Below are positions 37,003-47,068 of a stretch of 64,000 nt of DNA, in pieces. The stretch is from positions 1 to 64,000 of the forward strand of contig JAJDZD010000055.1 of assembly GCA_022824865.1 (NCBI GenBank), in the 5' to 3' direction. Position 1 is the stretch's first letter. Every line of letters starts with the position of its first letter. The position numbers were made by a program, and so were the translations under genes. The notes under the pieces were generated by a model, which was not told the origin of the DNA, searched no databases, and saw nothing but the letters and a program-made list of their open reading frames with translations. The stretch is from Chloroflexota bacterium (GTDB lineage Bacteria > Chloroflexota > UBA11872).

Positions 37003-37055
37003 AACTGTCTCTCGCCAGCCCGACCCCAGAGGGGTCGGGCTGGCGAGAGACAGTT
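37003..37055. repeat. Perfect 25-bp inverted repeat
   Basis: Bases 37003-37027 are exactly complementary to 37031-37055 around a 3-nt aga loop; the arms begin aactgtctctcgcc. Tttt and a second T-run (ggttttttgggg) follow. It lies upstream of, not after, the DUF418 gene, so it is either a mobile hairpin (MITE/REP-like) or a terminator for transcription entering from the left. Confidence 0.75.
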
Positions 37056-37708: not shown

Positions 37709-38149
37709 TTATTGGCGGCCGCCGAGGGGGACGTCGCGGCCTTCGTCGAGGTCCAGGCGGTCGAACTGGCGGGTGACGTCGGTGCGGTGCGACTGGCCGA
37801 TGTCGGCCATGAACTGCCAGAAGCGTTCGCGGGCCGCATCGTCGTCGGGCGTTCTGACCATCATCTCGCGGTTGAAGGCCATGATCTCGGTGGCCGACCG
37901 CGGCCGCATTCGCGCCTTGACCCAGGCCCAGACCTCCTCGTCACTCTCGCGCGCGGCCACCGCATCCACGAAGTCCTGCGGCTCGATCCCCAGGAACTCC
38001 AGCAGCATCCCGGAAAAGAACGTGCGCGAAATGTAGTCCCCCAACTGACCGGCGATCTCGGCGCGCACCTTGTCGATCGCCCGCGGCAAAAACACGATCC
38101 CGTGCATCGACTCATACGGACTCCGCGGCACCCCATTCACCAGATCCAT
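37709..38149 (-). CDS. DUF5069 domain-containing protein
   Basis: 146 residues. Matches DUF5069: VPRSPYESMHGIVFLPRAIDKVRAEIAGQLGDYI, then LLEFLGIEPQDFVDAVAARESDEEVWAWVK. The ATG at 38149 is preceded on the reverse strand by GGAGGGAG at about 8 nt, which decides the start over an in-frame ATG nine codons upstream (38176). The function of DUF5069 is not known. It borders the accessory region. Confidence 0.82.
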   Translation of the reverse strand: MDLVNGVPRSPYESMHGIVFLPRAIDKVRAEIAGQLGDYISRTFFSGMLLEFLGIEPQDFVDAVAARESDEEVWAWVKARMRPRSATEIMAFNREMMVRTPDDDAARERFWQFMADIGQSHRTDVTRQFDRLDLDEGRDVPLGGRQ

Positions 38150-38669
38150 TGCGTAGCTCCCTCCAAAGTCGTCCACTGCATCATGCGCGCTGGGCAGAGC
38201 CCAGGGACGGCGGCCACCTCTCGACAGGGTAGCGAGGGGTGAGGCTGCATGGGGCCGCAGCCACCGAGCCCGACACCGGCCGGCCCGCGCTCAAGGTTAC
38301 GAAGGCGTCGAACGCTCGCCGCTCGACGTGTTCGTCAAGCGCAGCTGGGGCGGCTGGATCCACGGCGGACCCGACTCCGAAACCAGCGGCCCCAAAGAAC
38401 CTCCAAATCGTCGGCGCCCTCCAGGCCCTCCTCCGATCCACCCTCTCCGGTAGAACCGAACCCGTAGACCTCTAGCCGCAATGGCATCGGACACCATAAC
38501 TGAAGTTACAATTACCCAAGTACATCGCGCAGATCCGACCGTGCAAGCGATCAGCTTTTCAAAGCGGCCCAACCTCGGTCCAACGCCTCCCTAGCTTCCC
38601 CACGCGGCGCGCTCACTCCCCGGAGCCAAAAACGCGTCAAAGTCATCTTCGCTGCCGATAATCTATCGC
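38150..38669. other. Intergenic flank of the AT-richer two-gene unit
   Basis: About 520 nt. No gene supported; short frames on both strands overlap and lack family features. Base composition falls from GC-rich to AT-richer after about 38470, marking the edge of the ATPase/phosphoesterase unit. No tRNA or obvious direct repeat was found to mark an insertion boundary. Confidence 0.45.
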
Positions 38670-40958
38670 CTACCTGTCCAGATACAGCACATCACATCTC
38701 ACTTCCAATCGTTTACGCTCGCCTGCGCTAGGCATGAAGTCATCCGCAATCGCGCTCGGAACCGGCACGAAAGTTCGCTCATTCGCGAGAATAGTAGATG
38801 TCACGTATTGACCTCCACCCGATTCTGCACTAACGAGCCCGGGACACAGGATATCGTAGTATAGGCCAAAGTGCCCCGAGTGGTGCTGAAAAATGAACAT
38901 GACCTTACGACCGCCCCAGACAATCTCAGTTGTATGCGGCTGCAAGAAAAAATCACCCTTTTCCCGCTGCACGCGTTCGCTTAACGAAAGAAAACAACAA
39001 TATCCATTTACCGGCGACTCGCTCGTCAATATCAGTGCGTCTGTTCTCTGCTCCCGACGGTCGATCCCCGGCCTAGCCTCAAACGTATCACCAAGTTCAG
39101 TATCCTCGTCTCCGGATTCAAAGTCCCTTACCACCGACGAAACTGGCGCAGCACCAGAACTGCTAACCTCAACAACCGACCGTCCGGAATCTACTAGCCT
39201 CTTTGTTGCTTCCACCACGGTCAGAGTTCCAGCGGCTAGTTCCTTGAAAATCTCATCGACATTCGCCTTGTCATCAAGCTCGTATTCGAACCACTCTCGA
39301 TTTGCTCGAAGGTGTCGCAGGAATGCTTCCGAACCCTCGCGCGTACTACTAGGAACAAGTTTTGCTATTCGAGGAAAGACGGCCGATCGAACAAAGTCCT
39401 TCACGAAGGGTCCAAATGCGTCAAAGTCACTACGATAGAGTGCCAAAAGTGGAGCGACACTGCTTGACTCAGGGTTAACGTATATTGTGGCCGGATTGCC
39501 TGAATCAGTGACGAGGATCGAGAGACCGCCAGAAATGGCCCCGAAGCGCACTTCGGCTGCCAGAAAGTAGTCTTCTTCGAGAATTCTAGCAAGACGTGTT
39601 GCAAGTGCTGAGTGATCGAAGCTCTGTTGAGCGATTGGGATTTCTCGCGTGACCCTAGGACTAATGTCAACCTCTCTGATTCCTTTACTTCGAAGGTAGC
39701 CAAGCTCGCAATTTCTACGTGGAGATCTTCTCGAAAGCACAATCAATGTCTCATCCTCGCTCGCGTATGTCTGCACTACCGATTCACTTCGGCCACTGTA
39801 GTAGCGAATGCCACGACGTTTGACTACATCCTCAAGTCGCTCGAACTGGCCAGTCGGACGAAGATGCACCTCTAACGGACCACAGCGTGAGAATCCCTTA
39901 GTGTCGACAATCCACTGAAGAAACCCATCGTTGGAGAACGACTCCGAGTGGCTCGCAGCTATCGACGAAACTTGGTCGTCAAGAGCCGAGATGATGTGCT
40001 GCAAGAGTTGGTTGGAACGGGCGTCCAGTGCTTCACGTCCAGCAGTTGGTCTTAGAAATGGCAGATCCGCCACACCGCCCCATCGGTAACCTGAATGTGT
40101 GGCGACTCTAGATAGACCAAACCCTGACCGAAGTGTACGGATCGCACCGCGGCCCTGCAAAAGAACTACTGAACCGGACTGTCCCGGACTTGCAGGAGAC
40201 GTAATGTTCTGAATTACGACTCGGAGCTCGCCAGTCGCCATCCCAAGTACCTCCAAATCGCCCATGACGACACCAGCGAGATCTAATCCCTTTCGTTTCT
40301 CCGCCCACGCATGCTTCTCAGACGGAAGCACCGACCTGTGAATTGACCCACTCAAGCTCTCTTCGTTGAAATAAACAGGCACATCGACGAACTCAACAAA
40401 TTCGTGGAGATAAGCGCGAGCTTCCGAAACCGACACTCTGCTCTCCGAGGCAAGACGTGCTCGAATGGTTGTACCAGGCCTTCCTTTGCTCTCTATCGAC
40501 GCAACCGAGATCACGTTGCTATCTGTTGACAGGTCGGACTTCTCTACCGACGACAGGGTCCGCTCACCTGTCCGTGCTGACTCGCTAACCACTTCAAGCG
40601 CGTCGGCAACGCCAAAATTCGCCATTGCGCCAATACCGAAGGTGCCCACAACACCCGCTGCACGTGCCTCATCCGTGTTCTTCCCACTCCTGCCCGCATA
40701 CCAGTAGTTCGTCTCAATTTCCTGAGCGGTCATCCCAATGCCGTTATCAACCACTACTACGCTCTCACTATCAACGGTCACGAGAATGGCTGGTTCGAAG
40801 CTATCTCCCTTCGACATCCTCATGCGAATTGCATCAAACGCGTTTTGTGTATTTTCTCTCAACAAAGCGAGCGGCGACTGATAGATCTGATCGGCAAGTA
40901 ACTCGAGAATACGGGAAATCTCCACCTTGAAGGGAATCTTTCTTTCTGCACTGTTCAT
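38670..40958 (-). CDS. HSP90/GHKL-type ATPase of a two-gene accessory unit
   Basis: 762 residues. The N-terminal third has the Bergerat ATP fold in HSP90 order: N-box LLRENTQNAFDAIRMRM (Glu then Asn), G1 box VVDNGIGMT, G2 region GVVGTFGIGAMANFG, and a late PGTTIRARL. The remaining 500 residues have no family I recognise, though length and domain order recall HtpG-like or MORC-like proteins. The ATG overlaps the phosphoesterase stop (ATGA), so translation is coupled. Codon use and base composition are visibly AT-richer than the flanks, a sign of transfer. Chaperone or conformational-switch activity powered by ATP is inference. Confidence 0.78.
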   Translation of the reverse strand: MNSAERKIPFKVEISRILELLADQIYQSPLALLRENTQNAFDAIRMRMSKGDSFEPAILVTVDSESVVVVDNGIGMTAQEIETNYWYAGRSGKNTDEARAAGVVGTFGIGAMANFGVADALEVVSESARTGERTLSSVEKSDLSTDSNVISVASIESKGRPGTTIRARLASESRVSVSEARAYLHEFVEFVDVPVYFNEESLSGSIHRSVLPSEKHAWAEKRKGLDLAGVVMGDLEVLGMATGELRVVIQNITSPASPGQSGSVVLLQGRGAIRTLRSGFGLSRVATHSGYRWGGVADLPFLRPTAGREALDARSNQLLQHIISALDDQVSSIAASHSESFSNDGFLQWIVDTKGFSRCGPLEVHLRPTGQFERLEDVVKRRGIRYYSGRSESVVQTYASEDETLIVLSRRSPRRNCELGYLRSKGIREVDISPRVTREIPIAQQSFDHSALATRLARILEEDYFLAAEVRFGAISGGLSILVTDSGNPATIYVNPESSSVAPLLALYRSDFDAFGPFVKDFVRSAVFPRIAKLVPSSTREGSEAFLRHLRANREWFEYELDDKANVDEIFKELAAGTLTVVEATKRLVDSGRSVVEVSSSGAAPVSSVVRDFESGDEDTELGDTFEARPGIDRREQRTDALILTSESPVNGYCCFLSLSERVQREKGDFFLQPHTTEIVWGGRKVMFIFQHHSGHFGLYYDILCPGLVSAESGGGQYVTSTILANERTFVPVPSAIADDFMPSAGERKRLEVRCDVLYLDR

Positions 40959-42379
40959 GGCGACATTCTGCCAATCAATATTCTGGCTCTCAGTTGATCG
41001 ATTAGCGACGCGTCGATCCAATCACCCGCCAGGCCCAGCTTCGCTTCGGCAACGTCGAACTCACCCAATTTCAGCAGTAACGAGATCAGCATGACCGCCT
41101 CCTCTGAGTTCTGTGGAGGATCCAATAGCTCAATCAGCTCTTCCGCCCTTCCAAGTCCATCAAGCGATCGCATCATTATCTGACGCTTCTGCTGTGAATG
41201 GGACACACCGAATTCGTCGCAAAGTCCCAACGCACTCTCGAAGTCTCCTCTCGCCACTGCGGACATCGCATCGTCGACGGTTCGCGTCACCGTGCTAAGT
41301 GATCGCCGAGCCGTCGGCCGTTTGAAGCTAAGTTCGCTGTAGCTCTTTCCCCCAAAGTCATTCCTAAAGGAGGCCATAAATACTCCAGCCTCCGACATCT
41401 CTCGCACGTGCACCGTAACTCTGTCTTGATCAGAATCAATACATATTAGATTGAATTGTCGCCTCTCACCCGTAGGCAGCCCGCGATCACCCACAGCAAT
41501 CGACCCAGCACCGACGACCACCATTGACGTCAAGTTCGGTAGTCGCAGTTCGAAGGGCACGGCTCCTGGGAAATGCTGGTGACCATGTAATCCGACATTG
41601 AATCCGAAGTCAATGAGACGGTGAGTAACACGCACATCCATGTAGTCACTTGCCCTGGGTCCCCCAACGAGACTATGGTGCCAGACGGCGATGCCCAATG
41701 GCGCATCTGACTCTTCGAGCAGTCTCCGGGATACATTGATCGCTTCAGACCTAATCTCTCCAACATGGCAGAAACAGTCATTTCCGTTCCACGATGCGAA
41801 TCCCGCTATGGCACAGCCAAGGCTTGGGTGATGAAGAAACACAAGATCTTCGCAGCCGTGGGATAGTGGATTTGGATCTAGGTCTCTATAGAACTCGGAT
41901 TGAAAGTCCCTAAAGTGTCTAAGTCGCGACTCATAGGTTCTGCCGTCTACAATCTCGTAGGCTTGGCGATTGCTCCAGTTCCATCGCAATCCTGAGTCTG
42001 AATTGAACTCTTTGTAGCCTATTCCAGCTGGGCACTCTTCTAGCGGCGACATGGCTTCGTGAGCTCGGTGCCAACTGACGTCATGATTCCCTGGGACGAC
42101 CATTACCCGAGATAGATCAGATCCAACGAACTCCTCTGCTAGACTTCGAAGGAGACGGTCAGCCTCGAGATACTGAGACGCAATTTCCGCGTCTGGATCA
42201 CTCTCCTTTCTGTCCGGTCCCTGGATTAGATCGCCGCTCACTACAATAAATTCTGGTTGCGGGATGTTCTCCTGTTCCCATCGTCGCGAGTCGCTGCAAA
42301 TGGCTGCAATCAGATCGTCGTTGTCAAGACGAGGCGCGGCTGTTCGATGTAAGTCGGAGATATGGAGCAGCGTGGGCAC
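40955..42379 (-). CDS. Calcineurin-like metallophosphoesterase with helical C-terminus
   Basis: 474 residues. All five metal-site motifs of calcineurin-like phosphoesterases are in order: HISDLH, VVSGDLIQG, VVPGNHDVSWH, VWHHS and GLHGHQH, within about the first 275 residues. After a beta-rich stretch, residues about 370-474 are helical with TPR-like pairs (AMSAVARGDFESALGLCDEF; LLLKLGEFDVAEAKLGL). GTG start at 42379 puts HISDLH right at the N-terminus. Likely hydrolyses a phosphodiester in nucleic acid or a nucleotide. It overlaps the HSP90-like gene by 4 nt and precedes it. Function in defence is inference from the pairing and the neighbouring toxin-antitoxin genes. Confidence 0.82.
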   Translation of the reverse strand: MPTLLHISDLHRTAAPRLDNDDLIAAICSDSRRWEQENIPQPEFIVVSGDLIQGPDRKESDPDAEIASQYLEADRLLRSLAEEFVGSDLSRVMVVPGNHDVSWHRAHEAMSPLEECPAGIGYKEFNSDSGLRWNWSNRQAYEIVDGRTYESRLRHFRDFQSEFYRDLDPNPLSHGCEDLVFLHHPSLGCAIAGFASWNGNDCFCHVGEIRSEAINVSRRLLEESDAPLGIAVWHHSLVGGPRASDYMDVRVTHRLIDFGFNVGLHGHQHFPGAVPFELRLPNLTSMVVVGAGSIAVGDRGLPTGERRQFNLICIDSDQDRVTVHVREMSEAGVFMASFRNDFGGKSYSELSFKRPTARRSLSTVTRTVDDAMSAVARGDFESALGLCDEFGVSHSQQKRQIMMRSLDGLGRAEELIELLDPPQNSEEAVMLISLLLKLGEFDVAEAKLGLAGDWIDASLIDQLRARILIGRMSP

Positions 42380-42750
42380 TACTATGGCCTTAGTGACCGC
42401 AAAATGTCATGTCAGAAGTGGCTCCAAAACAGGAGCCCAAGATGTTTCACTGGAATTCGACGCTTGCTGTTCTTGCCCGCCTACAGCCCAGGAAAAAAGG
42501 GCATCTCGCTACCTGAGTAGCGCCAAAGTGTAGCATGGCGTCCGCGATTCGACATTTCCCGAACGAACTGGGCTCTCTCGCTAACCCTGCCAGAACTCGG
42601 AGGTTCGGTCGCCCAATTGGGCTGCTACGCGCAGAAGTCGCCTGGTGCGTATTCAAAGACCAGCCAAGGCGATCAACGCCACAATGTGGAAACGCGAGTT
42701 CTCTTGGCCGCCTGATTGTTTCTCAGTCGAAGCGTCTGCAGGAATCTCGA
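42380..42750. other. Intergenic upstream of the phosphoesterase gene
   Basis: About 370 nt. Frames of 60-90 codons exist on both strands but have no recognisable motif and differ in register, so none is called. The stretch should hold the promoter of the phosphoesterase/ATPase unit and its insertion boundary; I could not identify either. Confidence 0.4.
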
Positions 42751-43083
42751 TCACACGCCGCACCAAGCGATTCCTGCGACATGAGCAGGATTTAGGGTCC
42801 GGACGGAACACCCTATCGAGTAGTGTGGTGGATTAAGCATCTGGTTCGGTTTCGTCTCCGCCGCCCACTCCACGTCGATCGGCGCGTCGAAGTCATCGTG
42901 GGTCTTGATGATGTCACGATCCCGACCGGACCACGAACCCAGAGAGGGCCGAAACGGCAACAGCTGCGCCACCGACTTCCCCCGATTTGTAATCACAATC
43001 TCCCGACCCGTCGCCGTCAGCGTCCGAGCCAACCCGTGCAAACACCTTGACACCACAAGAAAATGATGCTTTGATGCCTGCAT
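42751..43083 (-). CDS. Phd/YefM-like antitoxin ORF, possibly a remnant
   Basis: Up to 110 residues from the ATG at 43083. The first 65 match type II Phd/YefM antitoxins: MQASKHHFLVVSRCLHGLARTL for the N-terminal helix, TATGREIVITNRGKSVAQLLPF for the core 'TG.EIVIT.RGKPVA.L.P', then HDDFDAPIDVEWAAE as the usual ending. The frame runs on 30 residues past that ending without similarity. Its start codon overlaps that of vapB on the other strand, within one CATG, and there is no toxin partner, so it may be a remnant or its 5' end may have been replaced by the vapBC locus. Confidence 0.6.
   Translation of the reverse strand: MQASKHHFLVVSRCLHGLARTLTATGREIVITNRGKSVAQLLPFRPSLGSWSGRDRDIIKTHDDFDAPIDVEWAAETKPNQMLNPPHYSIGCSVRTLNPAHVAGIAWCGV
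43047..43075 (+). promoter_or_regulatory. vapBC promoter
   Basis: TTGACA at 43047-43052 and TTTGAT at 43070-43075 with a 17-nt spacer, followed after 6 nt by the vapB ATG. The -35 is a perfect consensus. The distance puts the transcription start at or within a base or two of the ATG, so the message would be leaderless. The site lies inside the opposing Phd-like frame. Confidence 0.65.
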
Positions 43084-43360
43084 GCGAACCACCCTCACCC
43101 TGGACGACGATCTCGCCGACGCCCTCAAGCAGCGGGCGAAGCTGCTCGACGTCCCATTCAAGCAAGTCGTCAACGAAGCCCTGCGCCGCGGCCTCGCACC
43201 AGATTCCCCAGAAGACCGGCCAGTGTTTCGCGTTCGAACATTCCGCAGCGGATTTCGGTCGGGAGTCGACCCCATGAAGCTGAACCAACTCAACGATCAG
43301 CTCGAAGTCGAGGACTTCCTCGAAGAGCAGCGGAAGTTAATCGAAGAGCACCGGGAGTGA
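43082..43360 (+). CDS. vapB: VapB-type ribbon-helix-helix antitoxin
   Basis: 92 residues. N-terminal MRTTLTLDDDLADALKQRA and KQVVNEALRRGL form the ribbon-helix-helix DNA-binding fold used by VapB-type antitoxins to repress their own promoter. The C-terminal acidic helix (EVEDFLEEQRKLIEEH) would wrap and neutralise the PIN toxin. Its stop overlaps the vapC GTG by GTGA. No ribosome-binding site precedes the ATG; see the promoter at 43047. Confidence 0.85.
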   Translation: MRTTLTLDDDLADALKQRAKLLDVPFKQVVNEALRRGLAPDSPEDRPVFRVRTFRSGFRSGVDPMKLNQLNDQLEVEDFLEEQRKLIEEHRE

Positions 43361-43782
43361 TCGTTCCGGACGTCAATCTGCTGCTTTATGCCCATGACGA
43401 AGCGGCGCCCTTGCATCCCTCGGCCCTGCGTTGGTGGGGGCGTCTGCTGAACGGCACGGAACGCGTCGGCATTCCCTGGGTTGTTGCTATCGGCTTTGTG
43501 CGCCTGGCCACGCACCCGTCCGCGCTCGCGCATCCACGGTCTCCGGAAGAGGCGGTTGACTACTTGGACGAGTGGTTTCGCTTACCCCATGTCACCCCCT
43601 TGAATCCTGGCCGGCAACACCTCACCCTCGTACGCCGCGCCCTCGACGCCGCCGGCGTTGGCGGCAACCTCGCCACCGACGCTCACATCGCCGCCCTGGC
43701 CATCGAATACCAGGCCGAAGTCCACTCCAACGACAGCGACTTCAGCCGCTTCCCCGGCCTCCGCTGGCGCAATCCCCTCTAG
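43357..43782 (+). CDS. vapC: VapC-type PIN-domain ribonuclease toxin
   Basis: 141 residues. PIN-domain metal-binding acids: IVPDVNLLLYAH (D5), a central Glu/Asp region, NLATDAHIAALAIE and HSNDSDFSRFPGLRW. PIN toxins cut tRNA or rRNA when freed from their antitoxin. GTG start overlaps the vapB stop, the normal coupled layout. Last complete gene on the right side of the accessory region before the HIT gene. Confidence 0.9.
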   Translation: MIVPDVNLLLYAHDEAAPLHPSALRWWGRLLNGTERVGIPWVVAIGFVRLATHPSALAHPRSPEEAVDYLDEWFRLPHVTPLNPGRQHLTLVRRALDAAGVGGNLATDAHIAALAIEYQAEVHSNDSDFSRFPGLRWRNPL

Positions 43783-44371: not shown

Positions 44372-44429
44372 GCAGGGCCGCTGGCTGGCACCATGACGCG
44401 TGTTGTCCGCTCTCGTGCCAGGCGCTGCC

Positions 44430-45581
44430 ATGAAGATTGCCGACATCCAGTTCTATTCCTTCAACCCGGGCCGTCGGAACCTGGAGGTGGTGCGGGTCGA
44501 ATCGGACAACGGGTACTACGGCTGGGGCGAGGTGGGCCTGACCTCGCGGAACCTGGCGGTGGGCGGGGCCATTGCGCACTTTCGGGATTTCCTGATCGGC
44601 CAGGATCCGCGCCGCATCGGGCGTATCTGGCAGGAGACGTACCGCAGCCAGTACTTCGAAGGCGGACGGGTGCTGACCTCGGCCATGGCGGCCATCGACA
44701 TCGCGCTGCACGACCTGGTGGCCAAGAGCCTGGGGGTGCCCGTCTACCAACTGCTGGGCGGCAAGCAGCGGGACTTCGTGCCCTGCTTCGTCACCACGAA
44801 CGCCCGCAACCAGGACGACCTGGTCGAGGAGGTGAAGGGCCTGGTGGCAGACGGCTGGGAGTGCATCCGCACGCTGGTCTGGGGCCTGTGGGAGACCGAG
44901 GGGCAGGTCTTTTCGCCGCGCGAGTCGGTGGCCATTACCGCCGAGTGGCACACGGCGGTGCGCGAGGCGGTGGGGCCAGGTCCCGTGATCGGGCCGGACT
45001 ACCACCACCGGCTGAGCGTGGCGGAAGCGGCCTCGTATTGCCAGCGCATGCCGCCGGGGACCATCGATTTCCTGGAAGAGCCGATCCGCGACGAGACGCC
45101 GGCGGCTTACGCCACCCTGCGCTCCATGACCGACGTGCCCTTCGCGATCGGCGAGGAGTTTTCCAGCAAGTGGCAATTCGCGCCGTACATCGAGCAGGGC
45201 CTGACCAACTTCGCCCGCCTGGACGTTTGCAACGTAGGCGGATTTACGGAGGCCATGAAGGTGGCGGGCTGGTGCGAGACGCACTACATCGACCTGATGC
45301 CGCACAACCCGCTGGGCCCGGTCTGCACGGCGGCCAGCGTGCACCTGGGCGCGGCGGTGCCGAACTGGGCCTGGCTGGAGGACCGGACCGTTGACCTGGG
45401 CCGGCTCTATTCCGACGAGATCTTCCCCGTGCAACCCAAGCTGGACGGCACCTGGTACCCGGTGCCGGACGGCCCGGGCCTGGGCGTGGAGATCGACCTG
45501 GACGTGATCAAGGAGATTCCCTCCCGCCAGACCGAAACCCCGCATACGGTCCGACCGGACGGGTCGGTGACGAACTTCTGA
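44430..45581 (+). CDS. Enolase-superfamily dehydratase-like protein, tandem copy 1
   Basis: 383 residues. MKIADIQFYSFNPGRRNLEVV start, capping domain ending LGGKQRDFVPCFV, and barrel residues GPDYHHRLSVAEAASYC, DFLEEPIRDE and AIGEEFSSKW supplying Asp and Glu metal ligands, as in the galactonate/mandelate racemase-type group. C-terminal GLGVEIDLDVIKEIPS. About 58 nt after the HIT stop. Very close to the gene at 45914, from which it is separated only by a small DUF2283 gene, so the pair arose by duplication. Confidence 0.9.
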   Translation: MKIADIQFYSFNPGRRNLEVVRVESDNGYYGWGEVGLTSRNLAVGGAIAHFRDFLIGQDPRRIGRIWQETYRSQYFEGGRVLTSAMAAIDIALHDLVAKSLGVPVYQLLGGKQRDFVPCFVTTNARNQDDLVEEVKGLVADGWECIRTLVWGLWETEGQVFSPRESVAITAEWHTAVREAVGPGPVIGPDYHHRLSVAEAASYCQRMPPGTIDFLEEPIRDETPAAYATLRSMTDVPFAIGEEFSSKWQFAPYIEQGLTNFARLDVCNVGGFTEAMKVAGWCETHYIDLMPHNPLGPVCTAASVHLGAAVPNWAWLEDRTVDLGRLYSDEIFPVQPKLDGTWYPVPDGPGLGVEIDLDVIKEIPSRQTETPHTVRPDGSVTNF

Positions 45582-45840: not shown

Positions 45841-45913
45841 CCACTGGGGCTCCAAGTCGCGGCGTTGGCTGGCACCATGAGGCGTGCCGTTCGCTCCCGA
45901 GGCAGGCGCCGTT

Positions 45914-47068
45914 ATGAAAATCGCCGACATCCAGTTTCATGCCTTCAACCCGGGCTTCCGCAACGTGCAGACCGTGCGGATCGAGTCCGACAACGGCTTC
46001 TACGGCTGGGGCGAGGCCGGCCTGAGCACCCGCGACCTGGCGGTGGGCGGGGCGGTGTCGCACTTTCGGGATTTCCTGATCGGCCAGGACCCGCGGCGGA
46101 TCGGGCGCATCTGGCAGGAGGTGTATCGCAGCCAGTATTTCGAGGGCGGGCGCGTGCTGACCTCCGCGATGTCGGCCATCGACATTGCCCTGCACGACCT
46201 GGTAGCCAAGAGCCTGGGGGTGCCCGTCTACCAGCTGTTGGGCGGTAAGCAGCGGGACTTCGTGCCCTGCTTCGTCACCACCCGATCAAGCGACCTGGAC
46301 GAGCTGATCGCGGAGGTGAAGGGCCTGGTGGCGGATGGCTGGGAGTGCATCCGCACCTCCATGTATGGCCCGGGGATCAGCGACGGCAGCAACCGATTCG
46401 AGCCGCGCGAGTCGGTGGCCGTGACCGCCGAGTGGCACACGGCACTGCGCGAGGCCGTGGGATCCGGGCCGGTGCTGGGTCCCGACTATCACCACCGGCT
46501 GAGCGTGGCCGAGGCGGCCTCCTACTGCCAGCGCATGCCGCCGGGCACGATCGATTTCCTGGAAGAGCCGATCCGCGACGAGAGTCCCAACGCCTACGCC
46601 ACGTTACGCACGATGACCGACGTGCCGTTTGCGATCGGCGAGGAGTTTTCCAGCAAATGGCAGTTCGCGCCCTATATCGAACAGGGCCTGACGAACTTTG
46701 CGCGGGTGGACATCTGCAACGTTGGCGGGTTCACGGAGGCGATGAAGGTGGCCGGCTGGTGCGAGGTCCATTACATCGACCTGATGCCGCATAACCCGCT
46801 GGGCCCGGTTTGTACGGCGGCGAGCGTGCACATGGGCGCGGCGGTGCCCAACTGGGCCTGGCTGGAAGACCGCGGACCGGACTTGGGCCGGCTGTATTCC
46901 GATGAGCTATTCCCGCTTCAGCACAAGCTGGACGGCGTCTGGTACCCGGTGCCGGATGGCCCAGGCCTGGGCGTGGAAATCGACCTGGATGTTGTGAAGG
47001 AACTCCCGGTCAGCCACTGGGAGTCTCCGCACCTGACCCGCCCTGACGGGTCGGTGACGAACTGGTAG
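45914..47068 (+). CDS. Enolase-superfamily dehydratase-like protein, tandem copy 2
   Basis: 384 residues, near-collinear with the protein at 44430 (MKIADIQFHAFNPGFRNVQTV; GPDYHHRLSVAEAASYC; DFLEEPIRDE; AIGEEFSSKW). All predicted metal ligands are kept, so both are probably active; the loop after VADGWECIRTS differs most between copies (MYGPGISDGSNRFEP here), a likely specificity change. Similar sequence before the start (tggctggcaccatga) is shared with copy 1. Confidence 0.9.
   Translation: MKIADIQFHAFNPGFRNVQTVRIESDNGFYGWGEAGLSTRDLAVGGAVSHFRDFLIGQDPRRIGRIWQEVYRSQYFEGGRVLTSAMSAIDIALHDLVAKSLGVPVYQLLGGKQRDFVPCFVTTRSSDLDELIAEVKGLVADGWECIRTSMYGPGISDGSNRFEPRESVAVTAEWHTALREAVGSGPVLGPDYHHRLSVAEAASYCQRMPPGTIDFLEEPIRDESPNAYATLRTMTDVPFAIGEEFSSKWQFAPYIEQGLTNFARVDICNVGGFTEAMKVAGWCEVHYIDLMPHNPLGPVCTAASVHMGAAVPNWAWLEDRGPDLGRLYSDELFPLQHKLDGVWYPVPDGPGLGVEIDLDVVKELPVSHWESPHLTRPDGSVTNW

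What the first reader, a model, noticed from the sequence alone, without database searches (positions are those of the whole stretch)
38670..42379. Two-gene unit: calcineurin-like phosphoesterase coupled to an HSP90-like ATPase
Both proteins carry complete catalytic motifs (five phosphoesterase metal-site blocks; HSP90-order N, G1 and G2 boxes), and the genes overlap by ATGA. The unit is visibly AT-richer than its flanks. It sits between gene-free repeats with tgtcca motifs and a VapBC locus with a Phd-like remnant. Nucleic-acid-type hydrolase plus GHKL/HSP90 ATPase in an accessory region is the layout of restriction- or abortive-type systems, but I know no named system with exactly this pair.
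Basis: partly seen in the sequence, partly recalled or inferred. Interest (0 to 1): 0.85.

Follow-up and report, generated by a model that had tools for sequence, protein, structure and literature searches.

The report
Hsp90-like ATPase plus phosphoesterase defence cassette
Two tightly linked genes, a metal-dependent phosphoesterase and a reshaped Hsp90-type ATPase, travel together between unrelated bacteria, plasmids and phages and sit where sister genomes carry phage-defence genes, so they are probably an undescribed two-gene antiviral system.

Summary
Window 42379-40955 (-) encodes a 474-aa calcineurin-like phosphoesterase (PE). Window 40958-38670 (-) encodes a 762-aa protein with an Hsp90-type ATPase domain. 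They share an ATGA overlap and are AT-rich (GC3 0.51-0.54 against 0.78-0.90 in flanking genes). The ATPase is not housekeeping HtpG: only its N-terminal ~200 residues match by sequence, and the C-terminus matches nothing searched.

I found 17 further full-length relatives (24-68% identity), in MAGs labelled as several phyla, conjugative plasmids and phage contigs. All 17 have the PE directly upstream. The two protein distance matrices correlate at r=0.98, and DNA homology between loci stops at the two genes.

In sister genomes the same slot (window ~38466-43007) is empty or holds other cargo: a PDC-S28 helicase, a SIR2-like protein, a retron-type RT fused to an Mrr nuclease, and Eco57I-type methylases. 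Other copies adjoin restriction-modification genes, an ABC-3C system, or lie inside a Mu-like prophage. The PE's nearest curated families are the validated anti-phage phosphoesterases DS-9A and DS-8.

Best reading: a two-gene anti-phage system in which the Hsp90-like ATPase gates the PE effector. The defence role is well supported by context; trigger and substrate are unknown. I found no description of this pair.

The parts
40955..42379 (-). Gene 1: calcineurin-like metallophosphoesterase, 474 aa, GTG start
   Evidence: Pfam PF00149 1.6e-12; all seven metal ligands invariant in 16 pairs; AF2 model pLDDT 81
42347..42355 (-). PE block I, D9-x-H11 (SDLH)
   Evidence: invariant
42230..42235 (-). 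PE block II, G49-D50
   Evidence: invariant
42080..42091 (-). PE block III, G97-N-H-D100
   Evidence: invariant
41675..41680 (-). PE block IV, H234-H235
   Evidence: invariant
41573..41584 (-). PE block V, G266-H-x-H269
   Evidence: invariant
40958..41302 (-). PE C-terminal all-helical region (aa ~360-474, seven helices), repeat-like
   Evidence: secondary structure and pLDDT ~80-93 in the AF2 model; no Pfam repeat family hit
38670..40958 (-). Gene 2: Hsp90-like ATPase, 762 aa, ATG start
   Evidence: Pfam PF13589 1e-6; NCBIfam HSP90-family models match aa 7-223 only, far below cut-off; 17 full-length relatives
40359..40940 (-). GHKL/Hsp90 N-terminal ATPase domain (aa 7-200): N box (40830-40856), G1 DNGIGM (40731-40748), G2 GTFGIG (40629-40646)
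   Evidence: hmmsearch to PDB Hsp90s 8e-19 over 5-201; hhalign to HtpG 9e-22
40032..40049 (-). PTAGRE motif (aa 304-309; PTAGR invariant, E309 is D in one of 16), proposed counterpart of the Hsp90 middle-domain catalytic-arginine loop
   Evidence: aligned to HtpG NVSRE at the tail of the hhalign match; the middle region alone is not matched, so this is inference
38673..39053 (-). Conserved C-terminal domain (aa 636-762) without detectable homologue
   Evidence: no PDB, HtpG or significant Pfam match; 21 invariant columns in 11 diverse sequences
40955..40958 (-). ATGA stop/start overlap
   Evidence: sequence; overlaps of 1-14 bp in nearly all relatives
38466..43007 (.). Variable cargo slot: absent (empty) in two sister genomes, filled with other defence-type genes in four
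37709..38176 (-). DUF5069 gene, conserved left border of the slot (not part of the system)
   Evidence: 8e-39; conserved in sisters
43082..43782 (+). RHH antitoxin + PIN toxin, right border of the slot; the RHH/antitoxin end is conserved in several sisters (not part of the system)

Best explanation
This is a horizontally mobile two-gene anti-phage defence cassette. SHOWN: the two genes form a conserved overlapping operon, are inherited together, move as a unit of exactly two genes, and occupy a defence-gene slot. INFERRED: the Hsp90-like protein works as an ATP-driven dimeric clamp that senses an infection cue or phage protein, using its middle region and its unique C-terminal domain. It controls the phosphoesterase, probably through the latter's C-terminal helical region. 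On activation the phosphoesterase hydrolyses a phosphodiester, more likely a nucleotide or nucleotide signal than protein phosphate (DNA or RNA is possible), and stops phage replication directly or by halting the cell.
For: Pair adjacency in 17 of 17 full-length relatives of the ATPase. In 400 same-phylum genomes the ATPase family occurs in 3 and the PE subfamily in 2 of the same 3; the third has a diverged PE (PF00149, 3e-10) next to its ATPase. Mirror-tree correlation r=0.979, 0 of 5000 permutations as high. DNA homology between loci is confined to the two genes, e.g. L003/L005 8547-12279 and L009/L010 573-4349. Slot with empty sites in G229/G181 and with PDC-S28 (4e-258), SIR2-like, retron-type RT-Mrr and Eco57I-type methylase cargo in G085, G069, G301, G205. 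Neighbouring PLD-helicase/Type ISP methylase (L001), C5-methylase (L003), N4/N6-methylase (L006), Type ISP enzyme (L007), ABC-3C (L042). Inside a Mu-like prophage with an nSTAND-like NTPase upstream (L046) and beside head genes (L045). PE's nearest NCBIfam models are DS9_1 (13/13 members) and DS8 (12/13), validated anti-phage proteins whose phosphatase residues are essential. Published precedent for a GHKL ATPase needed together with a nuclease in defence: VcSduA, PMC12137116. PE fold matches Lmo2642, SMPDL3A and Mre11.
Against: No experiment. No recognised trigger or substrate. The ATPase model is poor (pLDDT 54), so the clamp architecture beyond the N-terminal domain rests on motif position and a low-TM Foldseek match. 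Some copies (L004, L008) sit among housekeeping genes. Several loci are MAG contigs whose taxonomic labels may be wrong. Physical interaction of the two proteins was not modelled. Neighbour enrichment was not measured against a random-gene baseline.
Confidence: 0.72

Rival explanations
1. A mobile-element counter-defence or host-takeover module: the phosphoesterase degrades an immune nucleotide signal or host nucleic acid for the benefit of phages and plasmids, and the Hsp90-like ATPase stabilises or regulates it.
For: Copies on conjugative plasmids and phage contigs. A phage metallophosphoesterase, Gp48, that damages host DNA and subverts immunity is published (PMC12287305). The fold resembles SMPDL3A, reported to cleave cGAMP.
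Against: Most copies found are chromosomal, several of them in defence slots or beside restriction-modification genes. The nearest curated PE families are defence, not counter-defence. Only 3 viral contigs were found.
Confidence: 0.1
2. An accessory part of neighbouring restriction-modification systems: the pair is the restriction (effector) arm and needs the adjacent methylase.
For: Methylases of several types lie immediately upstream or downstream in L001, L003, L006 and L007. GHKL domains occur in Type II restriction enzymes that give weak hits.
Against: The methylases are of unrelated types, and none was seen next to the pair in the window, in L042 or in several other copies. DNA homology between loci excludes the methylase.
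Confidence: 0.08
3. A non-immune stress or proteostasis module: a diverged Hsp90 chaperone with a nucleotide phosphoesterase that buffers stress and was acquired because the host lacks HtpG.
For: The own genome has no other HtpG-like gene. The N-terminal ATPase domain is true Hsp90 type.
Against: It is sparse (3 of 400 genomes), foreign by composition, absent from all sisters and shares their defence slot. Sequence similarity to HtpG beyond the ATPase domain is not detectable on its own.
Confidence: 0.07

Closest known systems
DS-8 and DS-9 (DefensePredictor systems, PMC13092281)
   Same: Metallophosphatase of the same broad branch; DS9_1 and DS8 are the best NCBIfam matches of every or nearly every PE here. 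In DS-8 the phosphatase is coupled to an NTPase.
   Different: DS-8 is one protein with a NACHT NTPase; DS-9 pairs with a HAD phosphatase. Here the partner is an Hsp90-type ATPase, and scores are far below the family cut-offs (39 against 420 bits; 22 against 790).
VcSduA (Shedu with GHKL ATPase domain, PMC12137116)
   Same: GHKL-family ATPase that is required together with a hydrolase effector for phage defence.
   Different: One polypeptide with a PD-(D/E)xK nuclease; no phosphoesterase.
HtpG/Hsp90/TRAP1 chaperones
   Same: N-terminal ATPase domain with the same catalytic residues; PTAGRE may match the Hsp90 NVSRE loop.
   Different: No sequence match of the middle region alone or C-terminus; operon with a phosphoesterase; accessory distribution.
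Mza (MzaB), Tmt (TmtA) and BbrUII/HgiDII restriction enzymes with GHKL ATPase domains
   Same: Weak hits restricted to the ATPase domain.
   Different: Only short domain-level matches; the models' lengths and gene sets differ, and no phosphoesterase partner is known to me.
Lmo2642 / SMPDL3A phosphodiesterases
   Same: Best solved-structure neighbours of the PE domain, apart from an integrative model of YydD-YydB.
   Different: 11-14% identity over the fold; no Hsp90-type partner is known to me.
Eukaryotic Hsp90-PP5 pair (analogy only, from general knowledge)
   Same: Hsp90 ATPase with a metallophosphatase that carries helical repeats.
   Different: The PE motifs (GNHD, GHxH) are not the PPP-family motifs; PP5's repeats are N-terminal; homology was not tested and is not claimed.

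Membership tests
DS-9 / DS-8 anti-phage phosphatase systems | PE scores above the NCBIfam equivalog cut-off | tested here: not met
   39 bits against 420 (DS9_1), 22 against 790 (DS8)
DS-9 / DS-8 anti-phage phosphatase systems | Partner is HAD phosphatase (DS-9) or fused NACHT (DS-8) | tested here: not met
   partner is an Hsp90-like ATPase in 17 of 17 loci
HtpG (molecular chaperone) | Full-length match above the curated cut-off | tested here: not met
   69.5 bits against 371, aa 8-223 only; own-genome hit below cut-off
HtpG (molecular chaperone) | Hsp90 ATPase catalytic residues | tested here: met
   E35, N39, D71, G105-G110, T163 invariant
HtpG (molecular chaperone) | Hsp90 middle and C-terminal dimerisation domains | tested here: inconclusive
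   no sequence match; Foldseek aligns ~650 columns to Hsp90s but from a low-confidence model with TM ~0.2
Calcineurin-like metallophosphoesterase superfamily (PF00149) | Five metal-site blocks D-x-H, GD, GNHD, H, GHxH | tested here: met
   Pfam above cut-off; all ligands invariant
Anti-phage defence system | Located in defence islands or slots and on mobile elements | tested here: met
Anti-phage defence system | Measured protection against phage | not testable with these tools
   needs an experiment
Named PADLOC/NCBIfam defence system | Either protein matches a known defence model along its length | tested here: not met
   only domain-level hits below cut-off

The most novel reading that the evidence does not exclude
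An Hsp90 paralogue has been turned into an immune sensor or switch. It gates a metallophosphatase that carries a helical-repeat tail and acts on an unknown nucleotide signal, as a prokaryotic functional counterpart of Hsp90-phosphatase (PP5-like) or SMPDL3A-type immune regulation.
Probability: 0.3. Interest if true: 0.82.

Novelty: new variant of a known kind. Interest (0 to 1): 0.64.

Why it matters
Hsp90 is known as a chaperone; a dedicated Hsp90-type ATPase inside a compact immune operon would show the fold used as a defence switch. It would also add a third architecture to the recently found anti-phage metallophosphatases, whose substrate is unknown in DS-8 and DS-9. The same enzyme branch coupled to NACHT, HAD or Hsp90 partners makes the substrate question directly testable by comparison. 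The plasmid copies provide cultivable homologues.

Tried and rejected
Housekeeping HtpG: rejected. Dependence on a specific methylase: rejected as necessary. Middle and C-terminal domain identity by sequence: nothing found. AF2 of the ATPase gave a poor model, so its fold matches are used only as a hint. Repeats shared between the two cargo flanks: none of 10 nt or longer. RNA element: none in Rfam. E. coli genomes: no DNA-level homologue of the plasmid pair. Phage records: only short ATPase-domain hits. Promoter and terminator scans: no more than chance. Other tgtcca-type repeat copies: the 30-nt sequence is unique in the genome. Literature: searches for the pair returned no description in the open-access library held; subscription papers and most preprints are not in it, so 'undescribed' is provisional.
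Full report
WHAT IS THERE. Gene 1 (42379-40955, -) encodes a 474-aa calcineurin-like phosphoesterase (PF00149, 1.6e-12). Gene 2 (40958-38670, -) encodes a 762-aa protein that begins with a GHKL/Hsp90 ATPase domain (PF13589, 1e-6). Stop and start overlap as ATGA. GC falls from 0.64-0.69 to 0.52-0.55, and GC3 is 0.54 and 0.51 against 0.78-0.90 in neighbouring genes, a clear foreign signature.

THE ATPase IS NOT HtpG. NCBIfam HSP90-family models match aa 7-223 only, at 70-100 bits against cut-offs of 371-455. A family profile hits PDB Hsp90s (TRAP1, Grp94, Hsp82, HtpG) at 8e-19 or weaker over residues 5-201. Profile comparison with HtpG gives 9e-22 and extends weakly to a PTAGRE motif aligned with the Hsp90 NVSRE catalytic-arginine loop. 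The middle region and C-terminus alone match neither PDB sequences, HtpG nor any significant Pfam family. The AF2 model is poor (pLDDT 54). Its best Foldseek neighbours are all Hsp90s over ~650 columns, but at TM ~0.2, which I treat only as a hint. The own genome has no other HtpG-like gene.

THE PE. The model is fair (pLDDT 81). Its structural neighbours are an integrative model of YydD-YydB, Lmo2642, SMPDL3A, purple acid phosphatases, 5'-nucleotidase and Mre11. Residues ~360-474 form an all-helical tail. Of 18,950 NCBIfam models, DS9_1 matches every one of 13 PE members and DS8 matches 12, with the best E-values of any family. Both are experimentally validated anti-phage metallophosphatases whose catalytic residues are needed (PMC13092281). 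Scores are far below the cut-offs, so this is kinship of the domain, not membership.

CO-CONSERVATION. A genome scan, a plasmid search, a same-phylum search and a viral-contig scan gave 17 full-length ATPase relatives at 24-68% identity. They come from MAGs labelled Caldilineaceae, Chloroflexi, Acidimicrobiia, Gemmatimonadota, Gammaproteobacteria and Rhodobacteraceae, from Rhizobium and P. aeruginosa plasmids, and from viral contigs. All 17 have the PE directly upstream (two of them only in part, because the contig ends), nearly always overlapping by 1-14 bp (the most diverged PE is confirmed by Pfam). In 400 same-phylum genomes the ATPase family is in three and the PE subfamily in two of the same three. 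Pairwise distances of the two proteins correlate at r=0.979 (0 of 5000 permutations), and all catalytic residues are invariant. Between loci, DNA homology essentially ends at the gene pair (only L002/L009, near-identical copies, share some downstream sequence). The window ATPase is 66-68% identical to copies in MAGs of other phyla but only 43% to its same-phylum relative G106, which indicates horizontal transfer (MAG binning errors are a caveat).

DEFENCE CONTEXT. No other genome of the genus carries the pair. Comparing synteny, the slot between the DUF5069 gene and the RHH/PIN-HIT-enolase genes is empty in G229 (89 bp) and G181 (78 bp). In G157, G117, G173 and G023 the DUF5069 gene lies next to the enolase and the RHH/PIN/HIT genes are missing. 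Other cargo fills the slot in four sisters: a PDC-S28 helicase (4e-258) in G085; a SIR2-like protein plus methylase in G069; a retron-type reverse transcriptase fused to an Mrr nuclease plus methylase in G301; and a methylase plus an unknown AT-rich gene in G205. Elsewhere the pair adjoins a PLD-helicase/Type ISP methylase (L001), a C5-methylase (L003), an N4/N6-methylase (L006), a Type ISP enzyme (L007) or an ABC-3C system (L042), or lies in a Mu-like prophage with portal, terminase and Mu transposase genes and an nSTAND-like NTPase (L046). L004 and L008 sit among housekeeping genes.

HOW IT PROBABLY WORKS. Shown: two-gene operon, joint inheritance, mobility, preserved active sites, defence-slot location. 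Inferred: an ATP-driven Hsp90-like clamp senses infection and gates a phosphoesterase effector. A GHKL ATPase needed together with a nuclease for defence is published for VcSduA (PMC12137116), and phosphatase-NTPase coupling for DS-8. The substrate is unknown: cyclic or other nucleotides are favoured by the fold neighbours, and nucleic acid is not excluded. Confidence is about 0.85 that it is a defence system, about 0.45 in the gating mechanism, and 0.72 for the statement as a whole (weighted to the defence claim).

NOVELTY. Neither PADLOC nor NCBIfam has a model that either protein matches along its length above cut-off, and searches of the literature library returned no description of this pair. 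I class it as a new variant of a known kind: a phosphatase-effector defence system with a new, Hsp90-type partner.

Noticed in passing
L064:9685-11241 (-) (sister genome G301, same slot): Retron-type reverse transcriptase (best PADLOC matches RT-Protease XI / RT-TIR XII, ~1e-129 to 1e-125) fused to a C-terminal Mrr_cat nuclease domain; possibly an undescribed retron effector fusion.
   Followed up: partly
window 38466-43007 and the matching slot in L061-L070: Defence hotspot in this genus between DUF5069 and RHH/PIN-HIT-enolase genes; a shared Eco57I-type methylase recurs with different AT-rich partners in three sisters.
   Followed up: yes
L061:6741-7889 (-): AT-rich 382-aa protein (GC 0.46) without any Pfam or PADLOC hit, by eye an internal duplication, beside the slot methylase; candidate new defence gene.
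   Followed up: partly
L048:9519-10073 (+): Short ORF upstream of the distant pair in G162 that by eye resembles the N-terminus of the slot methylase, perhaps a remnant.
   Followed up: no
G000 (own genome): No HtpG-like gene other than this ATPase; the same-genus genomes sampled also gave no Hsp90-type hit to P0001.
   Followed up: partly
window 37003-37055: Perfect 25-nt inverted repeat (3-nt loop) in the gene-poor stretch left of DUF5069.
   Followed up: no
window 44400-45581 and 45884-47068: Tandem enolase-superfamily paralogues (83% identical); in sisters G085, G069 and G301 the match to the second copy contains one in-frame TGA.
   Followed up: no
L046:6153-7889 (+): nSTAND-like NTPase gene directly upstream of the pair inside a Mu-like prophage, suggesting a prophage-borne defence cargo region.
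   Followed up: partly
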